Positions 21,374 through 28,732 are shown, counted from the stretch's first letter. The stretch: 64,000 nucleotides of DNA from Akkermansiaceae bacterium (GCA_903906515.1 CAIVKO010000128.1:1-64000), one strand, 5' to 3'. Notes: generated from the sequence alone by a model not told the origin. Numbers and translations are program-made.

Positions 21374-21611
21374 GACAGTGGCTTTTGCGGGTTATGAGGC
21401 CGGCGGGTATCCCCGCACGACGTGAACGGCGTATCCAAGGAAACGCCCGAGAGCAAGCCCAATAGAGGTGAGTGCAGCATGAGCTGATGTCCTTTTCGGG
21501 CTCAGGGATATTTCAAAATTTAAGAAAGATTTTTCTTGTGGCGTTCACTAAAAAGATTAACTTGCTTACAAGGTTTAAGAATGAGTTCCTGTAAACAAAT
21601 CTGATAGAGTG

Positions 21612-22406
21612 ATGAAAACGATTTGGCTGACATCCGGAATCCTGAGCGCTGCCCTGATTGGGACCGCCGCAGGGGTGCGTTTGTCAGAGCGTATCGAGGG
21701 ATTGCACGAGAAGTTTCTGGAAGATCGTCGTGAGGCTCTGCCCGCGTTGAGTGACCCATATGGGGTTCCTGCGGCAGCACGAGGGGTGCTTGAGAGATCC
21801 CGCGATTCGATAAGAGATGACACCCCATGGAAGCGCAATGTGGTGGCTACTGTGTTCTGGGTGGGTGAATTACCCACGGAAAATAATCCGACGCCCAACA
21901 CCAAGAGCGCATGGGATCAAAATTGGCAGGCCAATTTCGGTGGCTACGATGATCCGGACCGTCGCAATGGCTTTGTGCCGCAGGGGTTCAATCCGATGCT
22001 TAACCCGTTTTACGTCGCGCTTCCTTACAATGACGTCGCCAAGGGCGGGATCCACCGTCCGGAAGCTTCGAAAGTGATTCCTTGGTTCTGGGAAGACTAT
22101 CGAGGCGACGGTATTTCCGTCTGCAAGGGCAAGTGGGTCGCTATCCATCATGAAGGCCGCGTTTGTTACGCCCAATGGGAGGATGTCGGCCCCTTTGAGG
22201 TGGACCACTGGCAGTATGTCTTCGGCAACGAATCTCCCCGTCCCAATCGCAACCAGTCCGCAGGCATCGACCTGAGTCCGGCGGCGCGTGATTTTCTGAG
22301 ACTACGCAGCGGAGCAATCGTCGAGTGGCGCTTCGTCAACGATCACCAGGTGCCGAAAGGCCCTTGGAAGAACTGGTCCGGTGAACTCGCCCTGCCTCAA
22401 TATTAA
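21612..22406 (+). CDS. Conserved-looking exported protein, unknown function
   Basis: A 264-residue protein beginning MKTIWLTSGILSAALIG, a signal peptide or membrane anchor; GTG 21609 is an alternative start one codon earlier. The mature part is rich in Trp, Tyr and Pro: WKRNVVATVFWVGE, DQNWQANFGGYDD, FYVALPYNDV, CKGKWVAIHHEGRVCYAQW, DVGPFEVDHWQYVFG, GIDLSPAARDFL. The last parts resemble a double-psi beta-barrel fold as in RlpA/3D-type domains, with a WEDVGPF strand and an Asp before LSPAA, but this is only an impression. It starts its own transcript, upstream of the secreted/prepilin cassette, and may be unrelated to it. Confidence 0.7.
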   Translation: MKTIWLTSGILSAALIGTAAGVRLSERIEGLHEKFLEDRREALPALSDPYGVPAAARGVLERSRDSIRDDTPWKRNVVATVFWVGELPTENNPTPNTKSAWDQNWQANFGGYDDPDRRNGFVPQGFNPMLNPFYVALPYNDVAKGGIHRPEASKVIPWFWEDYRGDGISVCKGKWVAIHHEGRVCYAQWEDVGPFEVDHWQYVFGNESPRPNRNQSAGIDLSPAARDFLRLRSGAIVEWRFVNDHQVPKGPWKNWSGELALPQY

Positions 22407-22490: not shown

Positions 22491-23270
22491 ATGAAAACTA
22501 GCCAATGGACCGCCACGACGGCAGCCGTCATCACCCTGTGCACTCTCGCGTCAACACGTGTCTGTGCTCAATCGACAGACCCATCGATCCCTGTGGGTTC
22601 CCTGAGCGCAACCCCGACAATCGTCCAAGCCGGTACAAAACCAACCCTCGCTTGGAACGTCACGTATCCATCTGTTGTGAAGGACTACGTGGATGTCACC
22701 CCTCCATCGGGATCGACGACCCCTCCACCGGCTGGTGTCACAGTGATAAATACCACCATCACCCCGAAGGTGAATTTGATCGCGGACATTCGGATTCTTG
22801 GAGCCGGGGTTACCACTCAGGATTCCAAGGGTAAAATCGTTTATATTGAGACTCTCGGGCTGCTTAAATGCAACGGCGCGTCATCTTATACGACGATATT
22901 CGACGGCAAGAACACGGATACAATCGTGCAGCAACAAGGCATCATCAAGACCATCAATGTTACCGCGAACAAAGCGATGTATTTCGGCGGATACTACAAT
23001 AACAGCGGGACGCTTGGTACAAAATTCTATTCCACGAGTGGTGACAACGTGCGAACCTTGGTCAACGGGGAAAAGCCGCCCACCAACATGCCGGATTACA
23101 ACGCTCCATCGCTGGAAAGCTTCCTCAAGCCCTATCTGGATGCTTCCAAGAAAGTGAAGATCGGCCCAATGGATGTGATCATTTTCATGGAGTTAACTCA
23201 TACCGATAAGACCAATATCGGATATGACCTTCAGGATCTTGTGCTTCTTGTTACCTTTAGAACTCCCTGA
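22491..23270 (+). CDS. Secreted protein of the prepilin-associated cassette
   Basis: A 259-residue protein with a signal peptide (MKTSQWTATTAAVITLCTLAS, cleavage probably after VCA). The mature sequence begins with a Pro/Thr-rich region, SATPTIVQAGTKPTLAW, that resembles the start of an Ig-like or carbohydrate-type beta domain, and a proline cluster TPPSGSTTPPP. The rest is rich in Gly, Asn, Tyr and Ser and has a long beta-type stretch ending in GPMDVIIFMEL. No catalytic motif is visible and I do not recognise the family. Four bases separate it from the next gene, so it heads an operon of three exported proteins in front of the prepilin-like genes. Confidence 0.75.
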   Translation: MKTSQWTATTAAVITLCTLASTRVCAQSTDPSIPVGSLSATPTIVQAGTKPTLAWNVTYPSVVKDYVDVTPPSGSTTPPPAGVTVINTTITPKVNLIADIRILGAGVTTQDSKGKIVYIETLGLLKCNGASSYTTIFDGKNTDTIVQQQGIIKTINVTANKAMYFGGYYNNSGTLGTKFYSTSGDNVRTLVNGEKPPTNMPDYNAPSLESFLKPYLDASKKVKIGPMDVIIFMELTHTDKTNIGYDLQDLVLLVTFRTP

Positions 23271-23274
23271 TCTA

Positions 23275-23835
23275 ATGAAAATATCATTACTCCCGAAATG
23301 GGGTGTTCTTGCCATCTTCGTGGCAACCCCCTCTGTTGGTGCCGCAGAGAAACCCGTCATGCGGGATGCTGCGACTCATGAACAACTGGTCCAGTCCCTG
23401 CGCCAAGCGGATCAGGCGAACCCCATGAAACAAATGAAGCCAGCCACGGGAGAGGATCCGTCCTTGGTGAATCGTCCGCAAGATCTCATCAGTCAATCCG
23501 ACATCATAGCGTTCCAAGGCATTCAGACACTCGTTCCAAAACGAGCGGTTCTTCAGATTCCCAAAAAATACAGTGACCGCGTTGCGGCTCAACCAGGTGC
23601 GAAAGTAGTGAGTTGGGCTGATTTTTACGCAGCGAACCGCAGTTGGATTACCACCGTGGAAGTCAGCCGGACACAGGCTGAGGGGAATCTCGCGTTGCCC
23701 GAAGAAACCCAAAAAATGATGACCAAGTCCGGCAATCTCTTGGTGGCGACCTACATGGGAGGGCCGATCTCGCTCCTTCCGATTAAAGAAACTAAACCCG
23801 CAGAAACCAAACCCGCAACAACCCCAAAACCATGA
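23275..23835 (+). CDS. Secreted protein, unknown function
   Basis: A 186-residue protein starting at ATG 23275 with a signal peptide (MKISLLPKWGVLAIFVATPS, cleavage probably after VGA). The mature part is polar and has no cysteine. It contains a Met/Lys/Gln-rich stretch (ADQANPMKQMKPATGED) and ends in a lysine/threonine/proline-rich tail made of KPAETKPA-type repeats, which may be a flexible linker. The segment VVSWADFYAANRSWITTVEV could form a small beta-alpha unit. No family is recognised. It overlaps the next gene by four bases (ATGA at 23832-23835), so the two are translationally coupled. Confidence 0.7.
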   Translation: MKISLLPKWGVLAIFVATPSVGAAEKPVMRDAATHEQLVQSLRQADQANPMKQMKPATGEDPSLVNRPQDLISQSDIIAFQGIQTLVPKRAVLQIPKKYSDRVAAQPGAKVVSWADFYAANRSWITTVEVSRTQAEGNLALPEETQKMMTKSGNLLVATYMGGPISLLPIKETKPAETKPATTPKP

Positions 23836-24854
23836 AATCTTTCATCACCCTTCTGATTGCGGTTCTAGCTTCAACGTCCGCGTGGACATGGGCTGACACC
23901 GTGACTTATACCAACTTAATCCGTCAGGTTCAATTCCCGACTGGAGTGGCATGGGATGTGCCGGTAGCAGCGGCCGGAACGCAGTTGTCCCAACTTGCGA
24001 TAGATCCGGGCGGTGCCCGGTTTGAATTGTGGGCTGTGAAGTCCACTCCGCTCACAAACTACCTGCTGAACAGTGTGTATGTGGGGACCTACATCCCGGT
24101 CGCTACGGTGGCTATCACCTCGGAAGATCCTTATTCAATCATTCCAAGAACTCGCGCAGATCGACCGTTCTATGTAGATATCAGTGTGGGCGGTTTGCTC
24201 AGTGGTGCGACCGATCCGGTGCCGTCGAAGAGCTTGAAGTTCCTGCGGCACGTTCAGTCGTATGGTGTGGGCGGAACCGGTATCAATGTTGACCGGACTC
24301 AAGCCACACTGCTTACCCAGACCTCGCTCGCCACGAACGGCTCGCAGCGTCTTACGTTTCTTGTCAACTCCGTTCCTGGTGCTGATCGCTCAAAGGTCTC
24401 CGGTGAGGAACGTTTTTCGATGTTCTCGTTGGCTGACTATCAGGCACCGGAATCTCAACTTGCATCGCAGTTCATCCAGATCTGGCCGGTGGCCGATGGT
24501 TCGATCAGCGGCATCACAACAGGCCAATTGATCCGTTACACTGCACCACAGGTGACACTCACCGTGAACAACCTGTATCCGAACTCTACGACCTATGCTC
24601 AAGTTTACAAGGGAAGTCCCAATCTCGGAGAGGAAGGCACGATCGTTCCGGGTTCATCACTGGTCATCAACGACTCTGTGCCCGCCAGTCGTGTGCTGGT
24701 TGTTAAGGGATATGAATCCGCGTTGGCCGAAGACGGAGATTGGACGATGGAGTTGGTCACCAAGACCCCCTTTGGTCTTGATCGTTTGGCCTATGTCACA
24801 TTCAAACTCGACAGGACCATGAAAATGAACGCATCATTTACCACGACCGAGTGA
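23832..24854 (+). CDS. Secreted beta-rich protein, unknown function
   Basis: A 340-residue protein with a signal peptide (MKSFITLLIAVLASTSAWTWA). The mature chain is predicted to be beta-rich: GVAWDVPVAAAGTQLSQ, PFYVDISVGGLL, TLTVNNLYPNSTTYAQVY and GDWTMELVTKTPFGL look like alternating strands. Cysteine is absent. It is coupled to the previous gene by a four-base overlap and ends two bases before the convergent gene at 24856-25452. Function is not recognised; a role as a surface or periplasmic partner of the prepilin-like proteins downstream is an inference from position. Confidence 0.7.
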   Translation: MKSFITLLIAVLASTSAWTWADTVTYTNLIRQVQFPTGVAWDVPVAAAGTQLSQLAIDPGGARFELWAVKSTPLTNYLLNSVYVGTYIPVATVAITSEDPYSIIPRTRADRPFYVDISVGGLLSGATDPVPSKSLKFLRHVQSYGVGGTGINVDRTQATLLTQTSLATNGSQRLTFLVNSVPGADRSKVSGEERFSMFSLADYQAPESQLASQFIQIWPVADGSISGITTGQLIRYTAPQVTLTVNNLYPNSTTYAQVYKGSPNLGEEGTIVPGSSLVINDSVPASRVLVVKGYESALAEDGDWTMELVTKTPFGLDRLAYVTFKLDRTMKMNASFTTTE

Positions 24855-24855
24855 T

Positions 24856-25452
24856 TTATGGTTTCTTCATTTCCTCTAGCAGTTCTTTTCTGAAATTGTC
24901 ATTCCGATAGATCAGCGAGAAGCGCGCGTCCTTGGATTTACGCAACAGATCCTCTACCTCGGTGTAGGCCAGGAGGAGGAACAAGCCTTTGACCGGTTCA
25001 CGATGAAACGATTGAGTATGCGTGACGAATTTGTCCTCCACCAGCCGCTGCTGTTGGTTGGCAAGCAGTGCACCATGCTCCTTGGAGACTTGTTTTTTAA
25101 GCTCTTCAAACCGCGCTTCCATGGTATCAGCCGGGGCTTCGTTGTCGAAGTAATGGACCGTCAACTCGAAGAGCCTGCCACCAAGAAATCGCCCCTCTAC
25201 TGCTGCGGCCTTGCTATCCGGCAGAAAACCCTTGCGGGGCTGGATTTTAAGAATGCGAAAACCCGGTTGATCTCCAGGCAGCGAGATGGTAACGTCCAAC
25301 GAGTGTCTGCTCGCCCAAACAATCAATTTTTCCGGAGAATCTCCCCAATGCAAACCAAATGGCGGCTCAAGGAGGACTTGGGCAGTACCGTGGCCGGATG
25401 CCAACAGGAGAAGTGTGGCGGCCCATGCCAATATCCGGAATCGTCCGTGCAT
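24856..25452 (-). CDS. Exported protein, unknown function
   Basis: A 198-residue protein with a signal peptide (MHGRFRILAWAATLLLLAS, cleavage probably after TA). The mature part begins PPFGLHWGDSPEKL, a motif seen in several small exported proteins that bind or sense at the membrane, and has a long helical second half with EEMKK at the end. No family is recognised with confidence. It is the only minus-strand gene inside the 22.5-28.7 kb cassette, and its start overlaps the GTG start proposed for the divergent prepilin-like gene at 25447 by a few bases, so its promoter must lie inside that gene. Confidence 0.7.
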   Translation of the reverse strand: MHGRFRILAWAATLLLLASGHGTAQVLLEPPFGLHWGDSPEKLIVWASRHSLDVTISLPGDQPGFRILKIQPRKGFLPDSKAAAVEGRFLGGRLFELTVHYFDNEAPADTMEARFEELKKQVSKEHGALLANQQQRLVEDKFVTHTQSFHREPVKGLFLLLAYTEVEDLLRKSKDARFSLIYRNDNFRKELLEEMKKP

Positions 25453-25956
25453 GGCGGGAGCCTCAGTGTTTTCCGTCCGTTCCGCAAGCCGGGATCACTC
25501 AAGCGCGGAATGTTTTTAGTCGAAGCGACATTGTCGTTATCGATTCTGACCGTGATTGGACTGGTCTTGTTGAAGCTCTCGCTCAATATTCTGGAACCCC
25601 GCCAGTGGACTCTGCAACAAACGGTGACGGATGCATATATGACCTACGAACGCGCCTATGCCGAGCGTGTTCCTTTTGAAATTCTCACCACGACTGGTTC
25701 ACCATGGCCCCTGTTTCCTACCACCACCACCACCACCCAGGTGGAAATCGGTCGTCTGCCGGGAGGTCGTCCGATCACAGGTACGTTGGTTCGTACGCGT
25801 ATCCCGGATCCGGGAAACTACCCGACTGACTGTGGCACTGGCACTGTGACCACCAATCCTGCGGCGATGAAAATCTGGCAGGTTCAGAGCGTGCTGACCT
25901 ACCGCGTCGGCAACCGAACCTACGCAAAATCCCGAACCGTGCTGCGCTCCCAATGA
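25447..25956 (+). CDS. Prepilin-like protein 1
   Basis: A 169-residue type IV pilin-like protein. A prepilin leader is visible: RKPGSLKRG followed by MFLVEATLSLSILTVIGLVL, with Gly at -1 and Glu at +5 of the mature chain, the classic prepilin peptidase site. The hydrophobic helix would hold the protein in the membrane and in the fibre. The rest carries a Thr-rich loop (PTTTTTTQVE) and a small globular part with one Cys. The start is not settled: ATG 25510 sits after the cleavage Gly and cannot be right, so I use GTG 25447. It overlaps the following prepilin-like gene by four bases. Confidence 0.75.
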   Translation: MHGGSLSVFRPFRKPGSLKRGMFLVEATLSLSILTVIGLVLLKLSLNILEPRQWTLQQTVTDAYMTYERAYAERVPFEILTTTGSPWPLFPTTTTTTQVEIGRLPGGRPITGTLVRTRIPDPGNYPTDCGTGTVTTNPAAMKIWQVQSVLTYRVGNRTYAKSRTVLRSQ

Positions 25957-26480
25957 ACAGGATTTCCAACCAGCTTCGCAAGGGTTTCACTCTGATCGAG
26001 TTGACGATCGCACTGATGTTGGGGATGGCCATCGGCGCGATGGTGCTTTTGCTGTTCAACCAGCAGATCGCATTCATCAATCTTTTCAAAACCCAGAATT
26101 TTCTTACCGACGAGGCACCGATCATCAACATGTATGTGAGTAAGTTGGTGAGCCGTGCGGACCGATTTCGGTTGCACGACTCGGTGGAAGACGCGCGTGA
26201 AGGGAAAAATCCTCGACTCACCGCATCGCCAGTGGTGGTGTTGAATTATCGGCAACCGGACGGCACGATGCGCGCATCGATTCTCGCATTCCAGAATTTA
26301 GGAACTGGCTCGGCCCTGTATTATTACGTTGTGCCGGTCAGCGGCACCTTGCCGGCTCCACAGTGGTCGATCACCAATAAGCCAGCCGATGTTCAGTTCG
26401 AGGTCGAGCAGGGGTTGCTCCGGATGATCCTTACTGGACCTGCCGGGGAGCAAATTAAATTCTCAGGCACCATGCAGTAA
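25953..26480 (+). CDS. Prepilin-like protein 2
   Basis: A 175-residue prepilin-like protein with the textbook leader: LRKG cleaved before FTLIELTIALMLGMAIG, having Phe at +1 and Glu at +5. The N-terminal helix is followed by a second, soluble part that is beta-rich (VVVLNYRQPDGTMRASIL, YYYVVPVSG) and looks like a minor pilin of the PilW type. It begins four bases inside the previous prepilin gene and its stop shares a base with the next start (26480), so the three are a tight operon. No prepilin peptidase, assembly ATPase or secretin is visible in the window. Confidence 0.85.
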   Translation: MNRISNQLRKGFTLIELTIALMLGMAIGAMVLLLFNQQIAFINLFKTQNFLTDEAPIINMYVSKLVSRADRFRLHDSVEDAREGKNPRLTASPVVVLNYRQPDGTMRASILAFQNLGTGSALYYYVVPVSGTLPAPQWSITNKPADVQFEVEQGLLRMILTGPAGEQIKFSGTMQ

Positions 26481-28732
26481 TGAAAACCACCCATACAAGG
26501 GCCGGTAAGTCCGGCTACGTTTCATACATGCTGGTGCTTAGCACCGGTATCGTCCTCACTTTGCTGACCGTGTATTTCTACCGCAGTACGATGCGCGCAA
26601 ATGCCGCGCAAGCCACGGTCCAGTTGCAGGCGGATTATGCGGAAAAGGAAGAATCCATTCTGCGCGCAATCATCGCGATCGCGCCGAACCGTGCCATCCG
26701 TGCGATGCAGAACAATTCGAACTCTTCCAGTGCGATCAGCGAACCGCTGCGTTGGCAGAACATTTTTACCGAGGCGCTGGTGCTTGCCAATGCCAGGAAT
26801 TCTGTTTCCAGCGAACTGAAGGCCTCTCTCAACATCCCCAATCTTAAGGTCGGCAACATGGGCGACTCGGCGCTCGGCACGCCGAGTTTGATTTTCAAAT
26901 CACTCGGGACTTCCGGTTACGTGTCCGCCGGGATCAACCGCAGCCTGGGCGCTGGCTTTCCCCCCCCGCTCACCACCGGCAGCAGCTCGACGATCACTCA
27001 AGACCCGCTCTATGCTATCATCTCTAACGATAAACAATACGGAAACCTCGCTCAGACTTATTTGAATGACCCGAAGTTGAACGGCAATGGGACCACCTAT
27101 TACGGACTTCCCGTCGAGACTTATCCAAGGTTCAACAGGCTAGCCTATCCGAAGATCAATTTCGGCTATGCCAAGCCGGGTGATCCGTTTGTCGCCAAGC
27201 GGAATTGGTGGGCCTTCTCCATGAATGTGGCGCAGCACGACAGCGCCAATACGCTCATCACTCGTCCACCCCGTAATATGGTGCTTTCCATCTATGAAAT
27301 CCCCTCGCAGTTGGCGATTTCCGCATCCTCTTTTATGTCACTCGGGCAGTATGCTTCCGGCGAAGCTTGGCAGAACGTGACCATCGATGGTGGGGTTTTC
27401 GTAGGGAAAGCTGTTGTGGAGGGCAATACCACGCTTCCCGCCCTTGCCAGTCGCCGCGGGATGACGCTCTCCAGCGATGCCGTAGTCGGCGGCCAGAGAT
27501 TCAGTTCCAGTCCGTTCACGCCGGGGGTTAGGGAAGCCTATCAACTCACCCAAGGCGAGTTTTTTCCGGTGTCCCTGGCCTCGGAAAGTGGCAAAGTTGC
27601 ATTCATTCCGATCAACCGCGGTGCTGATTTCTTTGATCGTTTTACGCACGAGACGGAATCGAACACCGTATCTCCCACGTCTTGGAACAACTATTCGGTG
27701 GGTGCGCTGCAATGCGCGATGCGCCTGGACATCACTCAGGTGGCTGAAGGTAGTAAGAATCCGACCAATCTGCGCTTCTCCTATCTCAAGAATGGCAACC
27801 GTGTGAGCCTGGATGTTGATTTGACTAAGTTAGACGCAGATTCTCCTCCGCCGGGTTCACCTTGGCTTTTTGCCTGTAACGAGGACAAGGACGGGGTGAC
27901 CCCCTATAACTTCGGCACCGCAGTGGTGAATGTGGCCTACGGGAAGAACGGCACCTATGCCTATCAGACCGGAGTGACGGGTTCGGTGATCTTCAACAAC
28001 TCTCGCTTCGGCGACCCTCTGGTCGGCGTCATTAAGGCGGGATATTATAGACCCAGTTATCCCTTCGAGGTGAAATGGATACAGAATAATACAATTTGTT
28101 GTATAGCGATCTATCCGCGGCGTTTCGCTAAGTTCCTCGCAGCGTTGAATGCTGACTCCACGGTCGTGAACAACTCGCTGGTGGTCAATGTTGATTACAC
28201 CACCGCCACCGGCAGTGTCAGGCTGCACAAGCCGTCAGTCCCCTGCACGGATCTGGATTACGGTGTCATTCTCCAAGAGTGCGCGGATATGACATCCTTC
28301 ACCAAGGGCTTTTCCCTCGTCACCAATCTACGGACTTATATTGGGGATGATTTCAATATCACGCTTTATAAAGACGCCGTTCCGGCTATCTCAACGCCGA
28401 CAGGATACACCGGTTCTGCTGATACATATTATCCGCCCTGTTCGCTGTTTATGCCGGAAAAGCGCTACGGTGTGGATTTGGATCCCTTTTCTGTGAAAAT
28501 TGACGGCCAAGTCGATTCTCTTGCCAAAGTGGATAAGGTCAATGTATCAGATGCCGAGCCTACGATGATCCGCCCTCTGGATTCCAAATCCATGAGCGGA
28601 GCAAGTTTCGCAGCTAGTCGGATTAAGGTGAACCTCCGGCCCATCATCCATCCTGCGGACTTGCCGCCCATTACGATGATGAACTGGTTAATCGTATTGG
28701 AAGAGCGGAAGAGGGAGTTTGTGGGGTATTGA
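26480..28732 (+). CDS. Large prepilin-like / PilX-type surface protein
   Basis: A 750-residue protein whose N-terminus AGKSGYVSYMLVLSTGIVLTL looks like a non-classical prepilin helix: a small residue-rich leader, then Gly and a long hydrophobic segment, but no Glu at +5. A helical region follows (QLQADYAEKEESILRAI), then a long Asn/Ser/Tyr/Gly-rich chain, typical of large minor pilins or surface proteins of Verrucomicrobia and similar in layout to the big protein A of Verru_Chthon cassettes. Cysteines occur in pairs in the last third (TICCIAIYP, CTDLDYG, LQECAD), possibly forming disulfides. It is the last gene of the tight prepilin operon. Function as a surface or fibre tip protein is an inference. 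Confidence 0.75.
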   Translation: MKTTHTRAGKSGYVSYMLVLSTGIVLTLLTVYFYRSTMRANAAQATVQLQADYAEKEESILRAIIAIAPNRAIRAMQNNSNSSSAISEPLRWQNIFTEALVLANARNSVSSELKASLNIPNLKVGNMGDSALGTPSLIFKSLGTSGYVSAGINRSLGAGFPPPLTTGSSSTITQDPLYAIISNDKQYGNLAQTYLNDPKLNGNGTTYYGLPVETYPRFNRLAYPKINFGYAKPGDPFVAKRNWWAFSMNVAQHDSANTLITRPPRNMVLSIYEIPSQLAISASSFMSLGQYASGEAWQNVTIDGGVFVGKAVVEGNTTLPALASRRGMTLSSDAVVGGQRFSSSPFTPGVREAYQLTQGEFFPVSLASESGKVAFIPINRGADFFDRFTHETESNTVSPTSWNNYSVGALQCAMRLDITQVAEGSKNPTNLRFSYLKNGNRVSLDVDLTKLDADSPPPGSPWLFACNEDKDGVTPYNFGTAVVNVAYGKNGTYAYQTGVTGSVIFNNSRFGDPLVGVIKAGYYRPSYPFEVKWIQNNTICCIAIYPRRFAKFLAALNADSTVVNNSLVVNVDYTTATGSVRLHKPSVPCTDLDYGVILQECADMTSFTKGFSLVTNLRTYIGDDFNITLYKDAVPAISTPTGYTGSADTYYPPCSLFMPEKRYGVDLDPFSVKIDGQVDSLAKVDKVNVSDAEPTMIRPLDSKSMSGASFAASRIKVNLRPIIHPADLPPITMMNWLIVLEERKREFVGY

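What the first reader, a model, noticed from the sequence alone, without database searches (positions are those of the whole stretch)
22491..28732. A compact cassette of secreted and prepilin-like proteins with no known assembly partners nearby
Three exported proteins of unknown function (coupled or almost touching) precede three prepilin-like genes that overlap each other by 1-4 bases. Two of these have a proper prepilin cleavage site (KRG before MFLVE, and RKG before FTLIE); the third is a 750-residue protein with a degenerate leader and no Glu at +5. No peptidase, ATPase or secretin is in the window. Layout recalls Verru_Chthon-type cassettes but sizes and partners differ. It could be a separate surface or secretion fibre, or a set of minor pilins for a system encoded elsewhere.
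Basis: partly seen in the sequence, partly recalled or inferred. Interest (0 to 1): 0.62.

Follow-up and report, generated by a model that had tools for sequence, protein, structure and literature searches.

The report
Tip-protein cassette of undescribed bacterial pilus
The six genes are probably the tip part (three special pilins plus three secreted partners) of a retractable-pilus-like machine found only in one order of bacteria; its engine is on another contig in this genome but right next door in many relatives, so it is a new variant of a known kind of surface fibre rather than an orphan.

Summary
e1-e2-e3 are three secreted proteins and I-J-K three prepilin-like proteins; no assembly gene is in the window. 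It is not a Verru_Chthon cassette: K matches neither TIGR02600, GspK nor PilX.

The decisive finding lies outside the window. A secretin, PilB/GspE ATPase, PilC/GspF platform, PilT-like ATPase, two prepilins and an ABC ATPase form one cluster on contig C227 of the same genome. In many relatives that cluster sits beside the cassette, often 33-300 bp from K. Its PilT-like ATPase and secretin occur only in genomes with K (0 of 23 K-negative relatives). In two single-contig relatives the halves lie about 1 Mb apart, so the split is real.

K lacks Glu5 in 32 of 32 relatives, as PilX and GspK do. Its model best matches the Thermus tip pilin ComZ (Z 8.8, suggestive only). e3 is modelled as three Ig/Fn3-like domains. 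Best reading: I-J-K is the pilus tip/priming trio and e1-e3 an exchangeable tip-bound unit of a dedicated, apparently undescribed type IV filament system.

The parts
22491..23270 (+). e1: secreted protein, 259 aa, Sec signal peptide by eye (..VCA|Q)
   Evidence: ORF; family A3 (19 sequences); no Pfam family above cut-off
23275..23835 (+). e2: secreted protein, 186 aa (..VGA|A by eye)
   Evidence: ORF; family A4 (23 sequences); no Pfam/NCBIfam hit
23832..24854 (+). e3: secreted protein, 340 aa, modelled as three Ig/Fn3-like beta-sandwich domains
   Evidence: family A2; model pLDDT 87.4, pTM 0.69; Foldseek/VIA matches to tandem Ig/Fn3 proteins
24856..25452 (-). r198: conserved exported 198-aa protein encoded antisense between e3 and I; its start overlaps the start of I by 6 bp (divergent)
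   Evidence: A10; next to I and in the opposite direction in nearly all loci where it was found
25447..25956 (+). I: minor prepilin (I/PilV position), KRG|MFLVE, GTG start
   Evidence: A5: Glu5 in 24 of 24
25953..26480 (+). J: minor prepilin (J/PilW position), RKG|FTLIE
   Evidence: A6: Glu5 in 30 of 30; N_methyl 18.8 bits, 21.5 with its frame neighbours
26480..28732 (+). K: 750-aa prepilin-like tip candidate (K/PilX position), G|Y cleavage site, no Glu5
   Evidence: A1: Gly-1 in 30/32, Tyr/Phe+1 in 32/32, Glu5 in 0/32; model pLDDT 82.9, pTM 0.82, helix 13-75; ComZ match Z 8.8
21609..22406 (+). x1: conserved exported neighbour upstream of e1; membership of the cassette uncertain
   Evidence: A9, mean pairwise identity 69%; upstream of the cassette in most close relatives

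Best explanation
The cassette encodes the tip sub-complex of a dedicated type IV filament (pilus-like) machine of Verrucomicrobiales whose engine genes lie on contig C227 of the same genome. I, J and K are minor pilins in the order used by GspI-J-K and PilV-W-X; K, without Glu5 and with a large ectodomain, sits at the extreme tip and with I and J primes assembly of the fibre from the major pilin encoded with the engine (C227, 'g197'). e1-e3 are exported by Sec and dock on K as an exchangeable tip unit (adhesin-like, filling the place of PilY1). The fibre is pushed through the 604-aa secretin by the PilB/GspE-type ATPase and pulled back by the PilT-like ATPase. Shown: gene content, conservation, co-occurrence and linkage with the engine, absence of Glu5, Ig-like model of e3. 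Inferred: tip position, docking of e1-e3 on K, retraction, adhesion.
For: Synteny e1-e2-e3-(r198)-I-J-K across Akkermansiaceae and Verrucomicrobiaceae. In 38 fetched loci (not all independent) an engine gene lies near K, mostly 33-800 bp away on the same strand; in G036, G006, G019 and G029 the series K-ABC permease-g303-PilT-pilin-591-178-243-secretin-198-PilB-PilC-137-pilin-201-263-278-166 is contiguous. PilT-like ATPase: 27 K+A+, 9 K+A- (mostly incomplete genomes or K fragments), 0 K-A+, 23 K-A-; secretin gives the same counts, p 2e-9; e3 33/3/0/23, p 2e-13. Genus g18 (probably gut Akkermansia) shows no K and no C227-type ATPase but keeps another PilT/PilB set. ATPases, secretin and platform are recognisable PilB/GspE, PilT, PilQ/GspD and T2SSF. 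K lacks Glu5 in 32/32, I and J never do; PilX and GspK lack Glu5, and PilX is placed at the tip with PilY1 (PMC7541494). K model: long N-terminal helix, best match the ComZ tip pilin. e1-e2-e3-K is duplicated as a unit without I/J, and stand-alone e1-e2-e3 triplets occur in G001, G006, G016, G030, G035, G041.
Against: In this genome cassette and engine are on different contigs, and in single-contig genomes G004 and G041 they are about 1 Mb apart, so joint regulation is not given. The ComZ match has rmsd 8.5 A and Z 8.8, only a little above the background the tool quotes (7-8); Foldseek alone found nothing below E 1e-3. No PilY1-like domain in e1-e3. Fisher p-values ignore shared ancestry. No experimental data of any kind.
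Confidence: 0.72

Rival explanations
1. The machine is a type II-like secretion system and e1-e3 are its secreted substrates, with K as the GspK-like tip that engages them; no surface fibre is made.
For: GspK is thought to contact substrates at the pseudopilus tip (PMC7541494); e1-e3 travel with K and occur as dispersed triplets as substrates would; the secretin's best PDB match is a GspD.
Against: Nearly all linked engines read far enough carry a PilT-like ATPase, and this genome's copy has an intact Walker A; PilT is typical of retractile pili and not of T2SS. The genome has a separate T2SS-like cluster with secretin and G-H-I-J-K type pseudopilins on C129.
Confidence: 0.25
2. It is a competence pilus: K is a ComZ-like DNA receptor at the tip.
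For: Best structural match of K is ComZ, which binds DNA, is argued to sit at the tip and binds a neighbouring pilin (PMC6561018); PilT-like ATPase present.
Against: The fold match is weak; no DNA-uptake gene (ComEA/ComEC) was looked for near the engine; no counterpart of the three secreted partners is described for ComZ in the passages read.
Confidence: 0.12
3. A diverged Verru_Chthon cassette.
For: Same layout of small prepilins followed by a large prepilin-like protein without Glu5; the own genome has such a cassette (C4).
Against: No TIGR02596/98/99/02600 match, hhalign 2.5%, no D-type prepilin in the cassette, dedicated engine.
Confidence: 0.06

Closest known systems
PilV-PilW-PilX plus PilY1 (type IVa pilus priming/tip complex, Myxococcus xanthus; PMC7541494)
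   Same: Small gene cluster of minor pilins with exported tip partner; the X pilin lacks Glu5; several clusters can serve one machine
   Different: No PilX_N or PilY1 domain; the partner role would be filled by three proteins, one modelled as three Ig-like domains; K has 750 aa
GspI-GspJ-GspK tip of the type II secretion pseudopilus
   Same: I-J-K order, K without Glu5
   Different: No sequence match to NF037980 GspK; engine carries a PilT-like ATPase; own genome has a separate T2SS-like cluster
ComZ with PilA2 (Thermus thermophilus competence pilus tip; PMC6561018)
   Same: Large pilin with an inserted ectodomain, no Glu5, neighbour of an I-type pilin; best PDB match of the K model (Z 8.8)
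   Different: No sequence similarity found; DNA binding and insertion point untested; secreted partners e1-e3
Verru_Chthon cassettes A-D (TIGR02600, 02598, 02599, 02596)
   Same: Prepilins followed by one large prepilin-like protein in Verrucomicrobia
   Different: No family match, only two Glu5 prepilins, partners e1-e3, dedicated engine
Type IV pilus of Akkermansia muciniphila with PilQ Amuc_1098 (PMC4960237)
   Same: Verrucomicrobial type IV pilus machine with secretin
   Different: 907-aa secretin versus 604 aa here; the probable Akkermansia genus g18 lacks K and the C227-type ATPase

Membership tests
Type IV filament superfamily (machine plus pilins) | Extension ATPase, platform, secretin and prepilins encoded together with or co-occurring with the cassette | tested here: met
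Type IV filament superfamily (machine plus pilins) | Class III signal with Gly-1 and Glu5 in pilins | tested here: met
   I 24/24 and J 30/30 Glu5; K Gly-1 30/32 without Glu5, as known for the K/PilX position only
Retractile type IVa pilus | PilT-type retraction ATPase in the same locus | tested here: met
   C227 439-aa protein, PilT best in PDB E 1e-45, Walker A GPTGSGKS
Retractile type IVa pilus | Phylogenetic position of ATPase/secretin among T4aP | not tested
   no reference tree was built
Verru_Chthon cassette | K matches TIGR02600 (A) | tested here: not met
   K not among matches at E<=10 in own genome, none in 32 relatives
Verru_Chthon cassette | Prepilins match TIGR02596/02598/02599 | tested here: not met
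   for I and J (E up to 1), for the J family
GspK (T2SS) | Match to NF037980 GspK | tested here: not met
   no match; the same model does match other large ORFs of this genome
PilX/PilY1 tip | PilX N-terminal domain in K, PilY1 domain in a partner (Pfam) | tested here: not met
ComZ | Pilin fold with large domain inserted in the beta-sheet | tested here: inconclusive
   VIA-align Z 8.8, 323 residues, rmsd 8.5; Foldseek none
ComZ | DNA binding | not testable with these tools
   needs protein
PilGHI-type ABC transporter accessory (M. xanthus) | ABC ATPase plus permease next to pilus genes | tested here: inconclusive
   ABC_tran 39.9 bits for the 216-aa protein; the 255-aa membrane protein and the 303-aa protein have no family

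The most novel reading that the evidence does not exclude
A separate class of type IV filament machine confined to Verrucomicrobiales, with its own ABC transporter and a giant K pilin, that can be fitted with different secreted three-protein tips (e1-e2-e3 triplets) kept at several places in the genome.
Probability: 0.35. Interest if true: 0.78.

Novelty: new variant of a known kind. Interest (0 to 1): 0.62.

Why it matters
Minor pilins diverge so fast that a broad survey of type IV filaments left them out (PMC6668835), so tip complexes outside Proteobacteria are little known. Here a whole tip set, its secreted partners and its engine can be tied together by co-occurrence and linkage, in an order where pili are discussed mainly through Akkermansia. 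Dispersed e1-e2-e3 triplets make the idea of exchangeable pilus tips testable in culturable Luteolibacter, Haloferula and Prosthecobacter.

Tried and rejected
Pfam, NCBIfam and PDB sequence searches of K, e1, e2, e3, I, J: nothing significant besides the prepilin motif of J. Foldseek of K against PDB: no E below 1e-3. Verru_Chthon homology: rejected. 'Orphan cassette' was considered and rejected once the C227 engine was found linked in relatives. Assembly artefact as the cause of the split: unlikely, because single-contig genomes G004 and G041 also have the two halves about 1 Mb apart. A PilT family profile alone (TIGR01420) did not separate genomes, since all have some PilT; only the C227-type protein did. 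Paper search for Verru_Chthon found nothing in the open library, and searches on verrucomicrobial pili gave mainly Akkermansia work.

Full report
OBSERVATION. The six ORFs are present as stated. e1, e2 and e3 have ordinary Sec signal peptides by eye; I and J have textbook prepilin sites; K has SG|YVSYM.

CONSERVATION. K has relatives in 36 of 59 genomes of the genus and order, in 74 named loci whose titles, where specific, point to Verrucomicrobiales (Akkermansiaceae, Luteolibacter, Haloferula, Verrucomicrobiaceae, Prosthecobacter), and in 18 of 387 genomes drawn from the phylum, all in the same order. The gene order e1-e2-e3-(r198)-I-J-K recurs in most loci with enough flank. Variants are instructive: e1-e2-e3-K is duplicated as a block without I and J (L042, L044, L088, L090, L091, L093; some of these are the same genome from two collections); e1-e2-e3 is turned round as a block (L131, L144, L145); I-J can stand apart from e1-e2-e3-K (L096, L129). 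K and e1-e3 thus travel together, and so do I and J. Extra e1-e2-e3 triplets, in the same order but without I, J or K, sit elsewhere in G001, G006, G016, G030, G035 and (three places, one of them e2-e3 only) in G041. e3 was found in no genome without K (33/3/0/23).

THE ENGINE. Profiles for the secretion ATPase, secretin and prepilin peptidase hit this genome only outside the window's contig. One set, on C227 (14910-31487), turned out to be specific: ABC ATPase, membrane protein (permease candidate), 303-aa protein, PilT-like ATPase, prepilin 'g197' (GMTLLELT), 591-aa and 178-aa proteins, 243-aa protein, 604-aa secretin, 198-aa protein, PilB/GspE, PilC/GspF, 137-aa protein, prepilin of 156 aa, and four further small proteins. 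Nearest solved relatives are PilB/GspE, PilT and GspD/PilQ. In relatives this set lies beside the cassette: directly after K in G036, G006, G019, G029, G049 and G054, with the PilT-like gene about 50-110 bp after K in G043, G047, G050 and G053, and convergent to K in G405 and G429. Across 59 relatives the C227-type ATPase and secretin never occur without K. The nine K-positive genomes without the ATPase are mostly incomplete or have only fragments of K. The tables are not corrected for common descent. Genus g18 (probably Akkermansia by size and family, an inference) has no K match in the genomes searched and lacks the C227-type ATPase while keeping another PilT/PilB set. In the single-contig genomes G004 and G041 cassette and engine are about 1 Mb apart, so the separation seen here also occurs naturally.

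HOW IT PROBABLY WORKS. K never has Glu5 (0 of 32) although Gly-1 and an aromatic +1 are kept, whereas I and J always have it. PilX and GspK share this lack and are placed at the filament tip (PMC7541494). The K model (pLDDT 82.9, pTM 0.82) starts with a helix from 13 to 75, as pilins do, followed by a large mainly beta ectodomain. Among 997 PDB chains re-aligned, the best was ComZ, the Thermus competence tip pilin (Z 8.8; next 4.5). The tool warns that best Z of 7-8 is common, so this is a lead, not proof. ComZ too lacks Glu5 (Gly at position 5) and binds a neighbouring pilin, PilA2, that resembles GspI (PMC6561018). e3 is modelled as three tandem Ig/Fn3-like domains (pLDDT 87.4), a common build for adhesive or scaffolding proteins. 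The simplest account: I-J-K primes and caps the fibre, e1-e3 ride on K, the C227 engine extends and retracts it. Tip position, docking and function are inferred.

COMPARISON. It works like the PilV-W-X/PilY1 or GspI-J-K tips, but none of those families is matched by sequence. It is not a Verru_Chthon cassette. The genome also holds a cassette of that layout and lone Verru_Chthon_A-like proteins, as well as a T2SS-like cluster on C129. An ABC transporter beside pilus genes recalls PilGHI of Myxococcus (PMC3724824), not tested further.

NOVELTY. Type IV filaments are a known kind; this tip set, its partners and its linkage to an order-specific engine were not found described in the open literature that could be searched, which misses many subscription papers. 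I rate it a new variant of a known kind.

Noticed in passing
window 21609-22406: x1, a highly conserved exported protein (mean pairwise identity 69%) upstream of the cassette; its end (DVGPFE..AGIDLSPAARDFL) recalls RlpA-like double-psi barrels by eye, but no Pfam model matches.
   Followed up: partly
window 24856-25452: r198, antisense conserved gene with FGLxWGDSPEKL motif, divergent from I, kept even where e1-e3 are absent from the locus (L058, L059).
   Followed up: partly
L075, L076, L077, L080 (own genome, contigs C189, C151, C105, C233): 1150-1350-aa proteins with a Verru_Chthon_A/GspK-like N-terminus, each followed by an exported protein of about 230-270 aa and without B, C, D prepilins.
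   Followed up: partly
L072:6162-11029 (own genome, C4): A four-gene prepilin cassette (223, 170, 254 and 982 aa) in a Verru_Chthon-like order, plus an exported 230-aa protein; only partial family matches.
   Followed up: partly
C-terminal ends of e1 in L042, L046, L053, L055; e3 and K in L060: A recurring Asn/Gly/Asp-rich tail (NNGHGNNxDGVDxSNPGxGxGGPNG...DDE) appended to different cassette proteins in some species.
   Followed up: no
L223, L224, L225, L226, L227, L228, L229: Stand-alone e1-e2-e3 (or e2-e3) triplets far from the K locus in several genomes.
   Followed up: partly
G292:C1:560018-562033 and G289:C33:152109-154100: K homologues with one in-frame TAG stop in two genomes of one genus (g20), possibly decaying copies.
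   Followed up: no
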